Positions 43,765 to 54,381 of a DNA stretch of 64,000 bases are shown here, one piece after another. Under the pieces are notes generated by a model, which saw nothing but the letters and a program-made list of their open reading frames with translations, was not told the DNA's origin and ran no database searches. How positions within the stretch are numbered: the first letter of the stretch is position 1; every line of letters begins with the position of its first letter. The DNA comes from Herbidospora daliensis. GTDB lineage: Bacteria; Actinomycetota; Actinomycetes; Streptosporangiales; Streptosporangiaceae. The position numbers and the translations under genes were made by a program. The stretch is taken from positions 1,855,069 through 1,919,068 of the forward strand of contig NZ_BBXF01000002.1 of the NCBI RefSeq assembly GCF_001570585.1. The letters run 5' to 3'.

Positions 43765-45459
43765 TCACCGCACGTCCGCCACCTGGCCGGCCAGCAGCCG
43801 TCGATAGGCGTCGTCTTCCAGCAGGTCGTCGTGGGTGCCGCGGGCGATCGTGCGGCCGTCCGCCAGCATGACGACACGGTCGGCGGTGCGGATCGTCGAG
43901 AGGCGGTGCGCGATGACCAGCGTCGTGCGGCCTTCTCGCGCCTGCCGCATCGCCTGGTTGACCTCCTGCTCGCTCTCGGCGTCGAGGTTGGAGACGGCCT
44001 CGTCCATGATGAGGATCGGGGCGTCCTTGAGCAGGGCGCGGGCGATGGCGATGCGCTGGCGCTGGCCTCCTGACAGGCGGGCGCCGAGTTCGCCGGGCAC
44101 GGTGTCGTAGCCGTCGGGCAGGCCGGTGATGAACTCGTCGGCCAGGGCCGCCTTCGCCGCCGCGACGACCTCGGCGTCGGTGGCCTGCGGGCGGCCCAGG
44201 CGGATGTTGTCCTTCAGGGGGACGTTGAACAGGTAGACGTCCTGGGGGACCAGGGTGATCAGGCTCCGCAGGTGGTCTTGGGGCAGGTCGCGGAGGTCGT
44301 GGCCGCCGATGGTGATCGTGCCGTCGGCGACGTCCCAGAAGCGCATGAGCAGGCTGGCGCAGGTCGACTTGCCGGCGCCCGAGTGGCCGACCAGGGCGAC
44401 GGTCTCGCCCGGCTCGACGGCGAACGTCGCGTCGGTCACGGCGTCGGGGAGCGCGGGGGCGTACCGGAACCTGACCCGGTCGAAGACCACCCGCGGCACG
44501 ACCTCACCGGAGAAGGACGTGACGCGGTCGCGGACCGGCGGTTCGGTGTCGAGGATCGTCATGATGCGCCGCCCGGCGGCCACCACCTGGTTGACGTCGC
44601 GGGCCACGTCGGTGACCGCGATGACCGGGGCGAACGTGGTGGCGGCCAGCACCACCGCGACCGGGAACAGCGCCGGGTCGAGGGAGCCGCCGCTGACCAG
44701 GAGCGCGGCGGTGACGAGGACGGCGAGCAGGCCGATCACGGTCAGCGCGTTGGTGACGCCGTGTTCGAGGCCGGAGCGGCGGGCGTGGGCGAGTTTGGCC
44801 CGCAGCAGCCTGCCCTCCAGGCCGCCGAGACGGGGGGTCGCGCCGAAGGTGACGAGTTCGCGCAGGCCCTGGAGGGTGTCGACGGCTTCGGCGTTGAGTT
44901 CGCCGACCTGGGCGCGCAGTTCCTCGCCCTGCGACTCGGCCCTGCGCCGCAACCATGACGGCACGGTGGCCAGCAGGATCAGTGCGGGCGCCAGCGCGAG
45001 GGCGAGGGCCGGGTCGAAGGTGCCGAGCGCGGTGAGCGCGGCCACCGGCACGGTCGCGGCGCTGACCAGTGGGCTGAGGGTGTGGGCGAACCACAACTCC
45101 AGTTGCTCCACGTCGGAGATGGCCGCCGCGCCCAGGTCGCCCGACCGGCGTTCGAGCAGGTAGCCGGGGGCCAGCCGCTCGAAGGCGGCGTAGACGCGGC
45201 CGCGGATGTCGGCCAGCACCCGGAAGGCGGCCACGTGGGCGAGGTAGGACTCCAGCCACGGCGTGACGCCGACGAACGGCAGCAGCACGCCCAGCAGGAT
45301 CAGGCCGCCGGTGAACTCCTGGCCGGTGATGGCCCGGCTGACCACCCACGCGCCGGTTCCGGCGGAGGCCAGGACGACGAGGTGGTGGGCGATGCCGCTG
45401 AGGACGGCGGCGATCAGCAGCGGGCGGTGGCGGCCGATCAGGGCGAGGAACCGGGTCAT
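43765..45459 (-). CDS. ABC exporter half-transporter (CydC-like), last gene of the RiPP operon
   Basis: A 564-residue fused membrane/ATPase protein with six helices in the first 310 residues, then an ABC domain with Walker A GHSGAGKST, signature LSGGQRQRIAIARALL and Walker B ILIMDEA. It overlaps the preceding half-transporter gene by four bases and almost certainly forms a heterodimer with it. CydDC proteins export thiols beside cytochrome bd genes, but no cydAB is present. Given the operon, export of the mature peptide or of a thiol needed for it is more likely. Confidence 0.88.
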   Translation of the reverse strand: MTRFLALIGRHRPLLIAAVLSGIAHHLVVLASAGTGAWVVSRAITGQEFTGGLILLGVLLPFVGVTPWLESYLAHVAAFRVLADIRGRVYAAFERLAPGYLLERRSGDLGAAAISDVEQLELWFAHTLSPLVSAATVPVAALTALGTFDPALALALAPALILLATVPSWLRRRAESQGEELRAQVGELNAEAVDTLQGLRELVTFGATPRLGGLEGRLLRAKLAHARRSGLEHGVTNALTVIGLLAVLVTAALLVSGGSLDPALFPVAVVLAATTFAPVIAVTDVARDVNQVVAAGRRIMTILDTEPPVRDRVTSFSGEVVPRVVFDRVRFRYAPALPDAVTDATFAVEPGETVALVGHSGAGKSTCASLLMRFWDVADGTITIGGHDLRDLPQDHLRSLITLVPQDVYLFNVPLKDNIRLGRPQATDAEVVAAAKAALADEFITGLPDGYDTVPGELGARLSGGQRQRIAIARALLKDAPILIMDEAVSNLDAESEQEVNQAMRQAREGRTTLVIAHRLSTIRTADRVVMLADGRTIARGTHDDLLEDDAYRRLLAGQVADVR

Positions 45460-47162
45460 CGGGCTGCTCCTTCCTGGGCGGCGACCAGGCGGGCGTAGGC
45501 GCCGCGCCGGGTCAGCAGGTCGTCGTGGTGGCCGGACTCGACGACCTGGCCGGCGTCCATGACGATCACCCGGTCGGCGTTCCGCACCGTGGACAGGCGG
45601 TGGGCGATCATCAGGGTGGTCCGGCCGCCGGTGAGGGTGTCGAGGGCCTGCTGGATGGCGGCCTCGTTGGCGGCGTCGACGCTGGAGGTGGCCTCGTCGA
45701 GGACGAGGATCGGGGCGTCCTTGAGCAGGGCGCGGGCGATGGCGATGCGCTGGCGTTCGCCGCCCGACAGCTTCAGGCCGCGTTCGCCGACGATCGTGTC
45801 GTAGCCCTGGGGGAGCGCGGTGATGAACTCGTGCGCCCGCGCGGCGACGGCCGCGTCGGTGATCTGGGCTTCGGTGGCGTCGGGGCGGCCGAGGGCGAGG
45901 TTGTGCCGGACGGTGCCGTGGAACAGGTAGGTGTCCTGGGAGACCACGGCCACCAGGGAACGCAGCCGGTCGAGCGGCAGGTCGCGGACGTCGACGTCGC
46001 TGACGCTGATCCGGCCCTCAGTGGTGTCGAAGAAGCGCAGCAGCAGCGCCGCCACCGTGGTCTTGCCCGCGCCCGAGCGGCCGACCAGGGCGACGCGTTC
46101 GCCGGGAGCCACGTCGAGGGTGAAGCCGGTCAGGGCGGGGCGGTCGCGGTCGCGGTAGGTGAAGGTGACGCCGGTGAAGGACAGGGACACGGGCCCGGCC
46201 ACCGACGCCGTCCCCGCTTCCTGTACGGGCTCGTCGAGCACCTCCAGCACGGCCCGCAGCGACGGGACCGCGTTGTAGCTGGAGTGGTAGGCCCCCTCCA
46301 GGTCGCGCAGCGGGCGGAAACACTCGGCGGTCAGCATCAGGATCAGCAGCAGCTCGGTGACCGTGATCTCCCCGGCCGTCAGGCGATACGCGCCGACCCC
46401 GATCGCGACGGCGGTGCCGGTGGCGATGACGAAGGCGACGCCGCCGACGTACAGGACGACCACGGCCATCAGGCGGATGGAGTCGGTGCAGAACCTCTCG
46501 GCCAGCGCGGCGAGTTCGGCGCCCCGGCGGCGGCCGGCGTTGAACGCCTTCAGGGTGACCATGCCCTGGAGGGCGTCGAGGTTCTCGGCGTACAGGCTCT
46601 TGTAGGCGGTGAACCACGCCTTGTTGCGGTCGGCGAGCACCTTCTCGGAGACCAGCGGCAGCACCGGCAGCAGGATCGAGCACGCCAGCACGACCAGGCC
46701 CACGACGACGTCGAGGGTGAACAGGTAGGCGGTCACGGCGACCGCGCCGACGACGGCCGCGATCACCTGGGGCAGGAACCGGCCGACGTAGGCGTCGGCG
46801 GTCTCGATGCCGTCGACCAGGCTGGTCTGGGTCGATCCGGTCCGGCCGCGCTGGGTCCATCCCGGGCCGAGCACCAGGAGTTTGGCGACCAGGCGTTCCC
46901 GCAGGTCGGCCTTGACCAGCCCGGAGGTGCGCAGCGCCGCCGTCTCCTTCACGGCCAGGGCCACGCTGCGGACCACCTGGAGGCCGGCGATGCCGGCCAG
47001 CGGCCATCCGATGGCGGCGAAGCCGTCACCGGCGAAGATCGACGCCAGCGCGTGGGCGACGAGGACGCCCTGGAGGACGTAGGTGGCGGTGACGGTCAGC
47101 AGGATCGCCACCAGGCCGGCCAGCCTGAGGCGCACCGCCGGGGTCAGCAATCGCCCGATCAT
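45456..47162 (-). CDS. ABC exporter half-transporter (CydD-like) of the RiPP operon
   Basis: A 568-residue fused membrane/ATPase protein with six N-terminal helices and an ABC domain carrying GRSGAGKTT, LSGGERQRIAIARALL and ILVLDEATS. The start overlaps the importer ATPase gene by four bases, and the stop overlaps its partner by four bases. It is the proposed exporter of the RiPP product. Siderophore clusters often contain the same paired half-transporters, for export or for reductive import. Confidence 0.88.
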   Translation of the reverse strand: MIGRLLTPAVRLRLAGLVAILLTVTATYVLQGVLVAHALASIFAGDGFAAIGWPLAGIAGLQVVRSVALAVKETAALRTSGLVKADLRERLVAKLLVLGPGWTQRGRTGSTQTSLVDGIETADAYVGRFLPQVIAAVVGAVAVTAYLFTLDVVVGLVVLACSILLPVLPLVSEKVLADRNKAWFTAYKSLYAENLDALQGMVTLKAFNAGRRRGAELAALAERFCTDSIRLMAVVVLYVGGVAFVIATGTAVAIGVGAYRLTAGEITVTELLLILMLTAECFRPLRDLEGAYHSSYNAVPSLRAVLEVLDEPVQEAGTASVAGPVSLSFTGVTFTYRDRDRPALTGFTLDVAPGERVALVGRSGAGKTTVAALLLRFFDTTEGRISVSDVDVRDLPLDRLRSLVAVVSQDTYLFHGTVRHNLALGRPDATEAQITDAAVAARAHEFITALPQGYDTIVGERGLKLSGGERQRIAIARALLKDAPILVLDEATSSVDAANEAAIQQALDTLTGGRTTLMIAHRLSTVRNADRVIVMDAGQVVESGHHDDLLTRRGAYARLVAAQEGAAR

Positions 47163-53764: not shown

Positions 53765-53781
53765 CTGAGGAGGTTGGGCAA

Positions 53782-54381
53782 GTGGGCCAGTACACCCTTC
53801 CGGACATGCCTTACGACTACGCGGCCTTGGAGCCGGCGATCACGGGCGAGATCCTGGAGTTGCACCACAGCAAGCACCACGCGGCCTACGTGAAGGGCGC
53901 CAACGACACGTTGGACCGGCTCGCGGAAGTCCGCGACAAGGGCGACTTCAGCGGCCTGGTCGGCCTGGAGAAGACCTACGCGTTCAACCTGTCGGGCCAC
54001 GTGCTGCACACGATCTTCTGGCAGAACCTCTCCCCGGACGGCGGCGACCGCCCCGACGGCGAGCTGGGCGACTCGATCGTGGAGCACTTCGGCTCGTTCG
54101 AGGCCTTCCAGAAGCAGCTCACCACCGCGACCGCGACCGTCCAGGGCTCGGGCTGGGGCGTGCTGGCCTGGGAGCCGCTGGGCCGCCGCCTGATCGTCGA
54201 GCAGGTCTACGACCACCACGGCAACGTCGGCATGAGCTCGACCCCGCTGCTGGTCTTCGACGCGTGGGAGCACGCCTACTACCTGCAGTACAAGAACGTC
54301 CGGCCTGACTACGTCGAGAAGCTCTGGTCGCTGATCAACTGGAACGACGTGATCGCGCGCTTCGACGCCGCGCGCGCCTGA
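53782..54381 (+). CDS. sodF: iron/manganese-type superoxide dismutase (SodF)
   Basis: Removes superoxide in the cytoplasm. A 199-residue Fe/Mn SOD with metal ligands H28 (in LHHSKHH), H76 (VLHTIFW), D160 and H164 (DAWEHAYY). Close to Streptomyces SodF, which is made when nickel is scarce and the Ni-SOD cannot be loaded. The Nur box and the neighbouring RiPP operon agree with that. GTG start; TGAGGAGG eight bases upstream. Iron rather than manganese is inferred from regulation, not from residues. Confidence 0.94.
   Translation: MGQYTLPDMPYDYAALEPAITGEILELHHSKHHAAYVKGANDTLDRLAEVRDKGDFSGLVGLEKTYAFNLSGHVLHTIFWQNLSPDGGDRPDGELGDSIVEHFGSFEAFQKQLTTATATVQGSGWGVLAWEPLGRRLIVEQVYDHHGNVGMSSTPLLVFDAWEHAYYLQYKNVRPDYVEKLWSLINWNDVIARFDAARA

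What the first reader, a model, noticed from the sequence alone, without database searches (positions are those of the whole stretch)
43765..54381. Candidate nickel-regulated RiPP metallophore operon
Eight minus-strand genes with gaps of 64 bases or less, or 4-base overlaps, join a tiny peptide gene, an E1-like/YcaO fusion, an LLM oxidoreductase, a complete siderophore-type importer and a pair of exporter half-transporters. Peptide maker, exporter and importer together are the logic of a metallophore, not of a bacteriocin. Three boxes fitting the Nur consensus tTGCaa-N5-ttGCAA sit on the operon promoter, the divergent GNAT gene and sodF. Nur is the nickel-responsive Fur-family repressor that controls Fe-SOD and nickel uptake in Streptomyces. 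This points to a ribosomally made nickelophore expressed at nickel shortage. I know of no described YcaO-derived nickelophore.
Basis: partly seen in the sequence, partly recalled or inferred. Interest (0 to 1): 0.95.

Follow-up and report, generated by a model that had tools for sequence, protein, structure and literature searches.

The report
Ribosomal peptide nickelophore operon under Nur
An actinomycete genome carries an eight-gene operon holding a 35-residue peptide gene, a cyclodehydratase-like enzyme predicted to modify the peptide, and two transport systems that would export and re-import the product, behind DNA boxes that match those of the nickel sensor Nur, so it is likely a nickel-scavenging system built from a ribosomal peptide.

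Summary
Eight minus-strand genes (43765-53072) encode a 35-aa peptide, a YcaO protein with a LynD/TruD-like predicted fold, an LLM oxidoreductase, a siderophore-type importer and an ABC half-transporter pair. Of 12 genome places matching TTGCRAN5TYGCAA with at most one mismatch, five lie at a nik-type operon, a cbiM-type Ni/Co transporter gene, sodF and (two) this promoter region. The genome encodes a Nur orthologue, NiSOD and urease.

All 25 YcaO matches at E<=1e-80 in 341 same-family genomes were read: 19 sit beside an LLM gene. The 18 intact peptides share MAH, F, HTPAVD and F-x-W; 17 have a TTGC-N9-GCAA box (at most one mismatch) within 100 bp upstream. Eleven control palindromes reach at most 2 of 18.

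Clade A (the window) often neighbours sodF. Clade B adds FhuF-like proteins, a MATE exporter and cobalamin riboswitches. A sibling two-YcaO family has Zur-like palindromes. This suggests one YcaO-RiPP family under nickel, cobalt/B12 and zinc control.

Nickel is the likeliest metal here; cobalt is the main rival. Product, metal binding and transport direction are untested. No paper on this was found in the held library.

The parts
52965..53072 (-). Precursor peptide, 35 aa, MAHPTFEELAESSVCVRAHTPAVDEAFAWNEDDAE
   Evidence: Sequence; 18 intact peptides incl. this one, MAH/F6/HTPAVD/F27/W29 in 18 of 18, C15 in 13 of 18
50990..52900 (-). E1-like/YcaO cyclodehydratase fusion (start TTG 52900; longest ORF from 52909)
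   Evidence: PF02624 152 bits; AF2 model matches LynD/TruD
49975..50979 (-). LLM-class (F420/FMN-type) oxidoreductase
   Evidence: PF00296 256 bits; best NCBIfam TIGR03559 320 bits, cut-off 335; near YcaO in 19 of 19 sets
48992..49978 (-). Siderophore-type substrate-binding lipoprotein
   Evidence: PF01497 67 bits
47896..48960 (-). FecCD-type importer permease
   Evidence: PF01032 314 bits
47159..47899 (-). Importer ATPase
   Evidence: PF00005 114 bits
45456..47162 (-). ABC half-transporter 1 (CydD-like), putative exporter
   Evidence: PF00664/PF00005; TIGR02857 395 bits, cut-off 435
43765..45459 (-). ABC half-transporter 2 (CydC-like), putative exporter
   Evidence: PF00664/PF00005; TIGR02868 318 bits, cut-off 329
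53113..53129 (.). Nur-type box of the operon, overlapping the predicted -10 by two bases
53096..53112 (.). Second, weak box-like site of the operon promoter
   Evidence: one mismatch to TTGC-N9-GCAA; same place in L031 and L032 without mismatch
53181..53197 (.). Nur-type box in the operon/GNAT intergene, 17 nt before GNAT
   Evidence: one of 2 exact TTGCRAN5TYGCAA places in the genome
53128..53156 (-). Predicted sigma-70-type promoter of the operon (TTGACC-17-TATGTT)
53215..53718 (+). Divergent GNAT acetyltransferase
   Evidence: PF00583; beside sodF and the peptide set also in L031, L076, L078, L081, L083
53748..53764 (.). Nur-type box of sodF
   Evidence: translation; neighbour in 6 of the 19 sets incl. 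window
54406..54415 (+). Possible anti-sodN element in the sodF 3' region (+25 to +34 after the stop)
   Evidence: 10-nt complement to the sodN 5' region L121 5216-5225; the S. coelicolor element lies at +19 to +37 (PMC3919588 passages)

Best explanation
This eight-gene operon, whose promoter region carries boxes matching those of the nickel sensor Nur, likely makes, exports and re-imports a ribosomal peptide metallophore for nickel. Proposed cycle: with enough nickel, Ni-Nur would sit on the box at the -10 and shut the operon off, together with sodF, the nik-type ABC operon and a cbiM-type transporter. At nickel shortage the 35-aa precursor would be made; the E1-like/YcaO protein would recognise it and cyclise a residue (the conserved Thr of His-Thr-Pro-Ala-Val-Asp, or the Cys kept in clade A) to an azoline; the LLM enzyme would oxidise or reduce the product. 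The half-transporter pair would export it and SBP-FecCD-ATPase would take the nickel complex back up. Shown by the sequence: genes, spacing, boxes, their conservation and the co-boxed nickel-type genes. Inferred: Nur binding, the chemistry, metal binding, transport directions and nickel as the cognate metal.
For: Own genome: strict box TTGCRAN5TYGCAA at 2 places without mismatch (nik-type operon; this promoter region); with one mismatch allowed 12 places, adding sodF, the second operon box and a cbiM-type gene. Nur orthologue 83/133 identical to 3EYY, the solved S. coelicolor Nur; six of seven His that I recall as its metal ligands are kept. NiSOD and urease present. Relatives: 25 places at E<=1e-80 in 341 same-family genomes, all read; 19 are YcaO-LLM sets. 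TTGC-N9-GCAA within 100 bp of the peptide in 17 of 18 (13 exact; the window itself has two one-mismatch sites there and its exact site at -125); 11 other palindromes of the same letters reach at most 1 exact and 2 with a mismatch. No DmdR- or Zur-like site in the same 18 promoters at the thresholds used. Herbidospora cretacea L031 has nik-type genes, a Fur-family gene, sodF, GNAT and the operon in about 17 kb, with TTGC boxes before each. An exporter is in place in 6 of 8 clade-A sets (pair) and 11 of 11 clade-B sets (MATE). LynD/TruD-like fold. Nur represses sodF and nikABCDE in S. coelicolor (PMC7055735, section 2.2 read); box consensus tTGCaa-N5-ttGCAA (PMC3919588, passages).
Against: No expression, binding or chemical data. 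The one-mismatch strict pattern is not rarer in the genome than its reversed control (12 against 15), and seven of the 12 places show no nickel gene. A complete importer is adjacent in only 12 of 19 sets; L078 keeps the exporter but only a fragment of the SBP, and L080 and L084 have no importer in the stretches read. Clade B sets carry cobalamin riboswitches in 10 of 11, so the shared HTPAVD core may serve cobalt. The best NCBIfam hits of the importer are 'F420-0' transporter models, all below cut-off. C15 is Gly in 5 of 18 peptides, so the modified residue is uncertain. No peptidase is in the operon. The nik-type SBP is far below the nickel-equivalog cut-offs (182 of 600, 180 of 393) and the permease below too. 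Several loci are close relatives, so 17 of 18 is not 17 independent events. One of the four M-site His recalled for Nur (H86) is Ala here.
Confidence: 0.68

Rival explanations
1. The product is a cobalt (or joint nickel/cobalt) metallophore, feeding vitamin B12 synthesis, and the box reports Ni/Co status in general.
For: Cobalamin riboswitches precede the importer or FhuF-like operon in 10 of 11 clade-B sets; cobalamin-synthesis genes neighbour L082 and L095; FhuF-like [2Fe-2S] proteins could release Co(III); one own-genome box precedes a cbiM-type gene.
Against: The window has no Rfam hit at all and none of the 7 other clade-A loci has a riboswitch on the operon (L075 has one on a divergent SBP gene); sodF is the known nickel-Nur target and NiSOD is present.
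Confidence: 0.17
2. A YcaO-derived antibiotic or signal that is merely made when nickel is short, with the importer serving immunity or recycling.
For: Characterised YcaO RiPPs are mostly antimicrobials (recalled); no metal binding is shown; importer absent from some sets.
Against: The box is shared with metal-uptake and SOD genes; 10 of 11 clade-B sets hold a FhuF-like protein and 12 of all 19 sets a complete siderophore-type importer.
Confidence: 0.1
3. The boxes are bound by another Fur-family regulator and the metal is iron, zinc or copper.
For: Some relatives carry a second Fur-family gene beside sodF (L031, L076, L083); siderophore-type importer; FhuF-like proteins in clade B.
Against: The own genome has only three Fur-family genes over the cut-off: the Nur orthologue and two that lie beside genes I read as katG and znu (no family search run on those neighbours); its presumed znuA promoter has a different, Zur-like site; no DmdR- or Zur-like site in the 18 peptide promoters.
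Confidence: 0.05

Closest known systems
Nur regulon of Streptomyces coelicolor (sodF, nikABCDE; sodN via s-SodF)
   Same: Same box consensus, Nur orthologue, boxed sodF and nik-type operon, a possible anti-sodN element at the same place
   Different: No peptide biosynthesis operon is named in the passages and section read (PMC3919588, PMC7055735)
Cyanobactin heterocyclases LynD/TruD and other YcaO azoline-forming RiPP enzymes
   Same: Fused E1-like plus YcaO fold
   Different: 16-17% identity; short peptide without a protease gene in the operon; LLM enzyme instead of a nitroreductase-type dehydrogenase (recalled); siderophore-type importer
RiPP metallophores: methanobactin, bufferins, MNIO thiooxazole metallophores
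   Same: Ribosomal peptide turned into a metal ligand (abstract starts, titles and reference entries only; rest recalled)
   Different: Those use MNIO enzymes and concern mostly copper (recalled); no MNIO domain (PF05114) was called in the operon
Opine and other small nickel-binding metallophores (staphylopine, yersiniabactin)
   Same: Secreted ligand re-imported with metal (recalled)
   Different: Not ribosomal; not known under Nur (recalled)
Sibling two-YcaO family found here (type II)
   Same: YcaO family, FEEL/F-x-W-type peptides in part of them, SBP/FecCD/ATPase
   Different: Two YcaO genes, often repeated cores (LPALQGPGTNALVHxPF), no LLM found in the stretches read, Zur-like instead of Nur-like palindrome

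Membership tests
Nur-repressed operon | Box tTGCaa-N5-ttGCAA overlapping the promoter | tested here: met
   17 of 18 peptide promoters incl. own
Nur-repressed operon | Genome encodes Nur | tested here: met
   83/133 identical to 3EYY
Nur-repressed operon | Nickel- and Nur-dependent repression | not testable with these tools
   needs RNA or footprint data
YcaO cyclodehydratase RiPP (TOMM) | YcaO domain | tested here: met
   PF02624 152.3 bits, cut-off 25.7
YcaO cyclodehydratase RiPP (TOMM) | Partner E1-like/leader-binding part | tested here: met
   Predicted fold matches fused LynD/TruD, alignments of 740-805 columns with gaps; Pfam calls nothing there
YcaO cyclodehydratase RiPP (TOMM) | Small precursor with Cys/Ser/Thr in the core | tested here: inconclusive
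   T20 in 18 of 18, C15 in 13 of 18; core borders unknown
YcaO cyclodehydratase RiPP (TOMM) | Azoline/azole in the product | not testable with these tools
   needs mass spectrometry
TIGR03604 SagD subfamily | Score above curated cut-off | tested here: not met
   201.9 bits, cut-off 219.25
Metallophore system | Biosynthesis, exporter and importer genes together | tested here: met
   met in the window; in the 19 sets a complete importer in 12 and a putative exporter in 17
Metallophore system | Product binds and delivers metal | not testable with these tools
   needs product and uptake assays
CydDC thiol exporter | Scores above TIGR02857/TIGR02868 cut-offs | tested here: not met
   395.1 of 435 and 318.4 of 329.05
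F420-0 ABC importer | Scores above TIGR03868/03869/03873 cut-offs | tested here: not met
   113.7 of 392.4, 293.7 of 437.35, 248.6 of 372.4
Methanobactin/MNIO metallophore | MNIO (PF05114) enzyme | tested here: not met
   not among Pfam hits of the nine proteins scanned, the eight operon genes and GNAT

The most novel reading that the evidence does not exclude
One YcaO-RiPP family makes dedicated metallophores for several metals: clade A for nickel (Nur box, sodF/nik neighbours), clade B for cobalt (Nur-type box plus cobalamin riboswitch, FhuF-like reductase, MATE exporter) and a two-YcaO sibling for zinc (Zur-like box). The metal would be set by swapping regulator, importer and core motif (HTPAVD versus QGPGTNALVH).
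Probability: 0.45. Interest if true: 0.95.

Novelty: new variant of a known kind. Interest (0 to 1): 0.88.

Why it matters
If true it is a ribosomal, YcaO-made nickel metallophore, and probably a family with nickel, cobalt and zinc members. A gene-encoded ligand can be re-coded and tested directly, which would open how actinomycetes collect scarce nickel and cobalt. The Nur-type box and the cobalamin riboswitch also give a simple sequence rule for finding such clusters and guessing their metal.

Tried and rejected
Antimicrobial-only reading: set back because the box is shared with nik-type, cbiM-type and sodF genes and because relatives carry FhuF-like proteins, importers and exporters. F420-0 import: NCBIfam hits all below cut-off. 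Iron or zinc: no DmdR-like (up to 5 mismatches) or Zur-like (up to 3) site in the last 200 bp of the 18 peptide promoters. CydDC thiol export: below cut-offs. Direction of the half-transporter pair against YbtPQ/IrtAB-type importers could not be settled: the PDB listing shows the best 60 of 573 and 577 only, led by ABCB-type, Sav1866 and MsbA proteins; the exporter reading rests on MATE taking its place in clade B.

Rows left out: L089 (peptide broken) is in the tree and neighbour table but not in the 18 promoters; L081 (YcaO broken) is in the promoters and neighbour table but not in the tree; L120 (YcaO plus half-transporters, no peptide found) is not classified; L115 and L116 are in the type II promoter count (16) but not in the tree (14). 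Type II peptides were found in 13 of 16 loci (not in L088, L090, L100). The class-level search found matches at E<=1e-60 in 14 of 394 genomes; I read regions of 10 of these 14 and found no further YcaO-LLM set; four (G004, G042, G091, G115) were not read. Rfam was run on 8 clade-A, 11 clade-B and 3 type II loci.

Literature: searched for YcaO/RiPP metallophores, nickelophores, cobaltophores and zincophores, for Nur. From the listings (one search showed 30 of 58 papers) nothing described this system; passages of PMC12710340, PMC13174530 and PMC11278768 were checked and concern other things. Only open-licence PMC papers are held.

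
Full report
Observation. The eight genes, their spacing and the boxes are in the sequence at the stated places. The peptide gene has a strong ribosome-binding site, and the only promoter-like site found nearby lies about 56-84 nt before it, with a box overlapping its -10 by two bases. The TTGC box is rare: 19 places for TTGC-N9-GCAA in 8.5 Mb against 109 for the reversed control.

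What the box marks. With the stricter TTGCRAN5TYGCAA the genome has two exact places: the promoter of a nik-type ABC operon (L068) and the operon/GNAT intergene. With one mismatch it has twelve (reversed control: fifteen), among them the operon box, sodF and a cbiM-type Ni/Co transporter gene (PF01891 195.6 bits). At the other seven no nickel gene was recognised. The nik-type SBP scores best with nickel SBP models but far below their cut-offs. The genome has three Fur-family genes: a Nur orthologue (83/133 identical to 3EYY) and two beside genes that I read as katG and znu. It encodes NiSOD and urease; no NiFe hydrogenase was found. The sodF 3' region holds ten bases complementary to the sodN 5' region, where S. 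coelicolor has its anti-sodN element.

Relatives. In 341 same-family genomes 25 places match the YcaO at E<=1e-80. I fetched and read all 25 (own window): 19 have YcaO with the LLM gene next to it, 6 belong to a two-YcaO sibling. Contig lengths show that three are Herbidospora cretacea, Acrocarpospora macrocephala and Thermocatellispora tengchongensis; the tool places H. cretacea in the window's genus. Eighteen of the 19 have an intact peptide. All 18 share MAH, F6, HTPAVD, F27 and W29; C15 is kept in 13 (all 8 of clade A) and is Gly in 5. A box with at most one mismatch lies within 100 bp of the peptide in 17 of 18, an exact one in 13; eleven control palindromes reach at most 2 and 1. The strict pattern with one mismatch is met in 15 of 18 (last 200 bp). 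The exception, L084, has a box at the start of a riboswitch upstream.

Clades. The YcaO tree puts seven clade-A rows and eleven clade-B rows each in one clade (supports 100/99 and 100/100), as sisters with moderate support (90/72). Clade A neighbours: sodF in 5 of 8 sets, GNAT in the same 5, nik-type genes in 2. Clade B: MATE in 11 of 11, FhuF-like in 10 of 11 (Pfam FhuF_C tested on two proteins of L082 only; the rest by similarity), cobalamin riboswitch before the importer or FhuF-like operon in 10 of 11; in the eleventh, L083, the riboswitch precedes nrdAB and the set has a clade-A-type importer with sodF and GNAT. Clade-A loci: one riboswitch in 8 loci searched, on a divergent SBP gene of L075. 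A complete importer is adjacent in 12 of 19 sets, a putative exporter in 17.

Sibling. Of sixteen two-YcaO loci, thirteen showed a peptide, with units such as FEELxxxxxLPALQGPGTNALVHxPF or VLAAPQDPTTHALVQxPFAW. TGAAAAC-n-GTTTTCA with up to three mismatches lies within 700 bp upstream of the E1-like gene in 11 of 16; 199 shuffled halves give a mean of 0.17 and a maximum of 8. The pattern was drawn from these loci, so the count is somewhat favoured. The presumed znuA promoter of the own genome has TGAAAATGATTGTCA. I take this as Zur-like; the Zur consensus is recalled. The own genome has such a cluster (L088), without that palindrome and without a peptide found.

Enzyme.

Mechanism. The parts fit a metallophore cycle under Nur. 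Metal identity rests on regulation alone: sodF is the classic nickel-Nur target (PMC3919588 passages; PMC7055735 section 2.2), while clade B ties the same peptide core to cobalamin. I therefore put nickel first, cobalt or both second. The invariant His-Thr of HTPAVD could give an imidazole-oxazoline chelate, and in clade A Cys could add a thiazoline; the invariant N-terminal Met-Ala-His resembles a Cu/Ni-binding N-terminus. These last three points are ideas, not results.

Noticed in passing
L088 (G000:C1:346001-366000) and 15 further loci: L086, L090-L094, L097, L099, L100, L114-L119: Sibling two-YcaO RiPP clusters with SBP/FecCD/ATPase, many with repeated-core peptides; 11 of 16 have a Zur-like palindrome upstream: possible ribosomal zincophores.
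   Followed up: partly
L079, L080, L082, L084, L085, L087, L089, L095, L096, L098: Cobalamin riboswitches in front of the importer or FhuF-like genes of clade-B clusters: possible ribosomal cobaltophores.
   Followed up: partly
window 54406-54415 and L121 5216-5225: sodF 3' region and sodN 5' region share a 10-nt complement at the place of the S. coelicolor s-SodF element.
   Followed up: partly
L081 2540-386 and L089 about 10334-10400: Two decayed clusters in one genome: a YcaO gene with its middle missing, and a peptide gene reduced to its tail, each beside a kept LLM gene.
   Followed up: no
L080 7681-11330 and L083 2697-6271: Class I ribonucleotide reductase genes nrdAB, with a cobalamin riboswitch, lie next to the clusters, in L083 beside sodF; fits a switch to cobalt- and nickel-free enzymes.
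   Followed up: no
window 52965-53072 and 17 relatives: All 18 peptides start Met-Ala-His, while the sibling peptides read do not; resembles a Cu/Ni-binding N-terminus.
   Followed up: no
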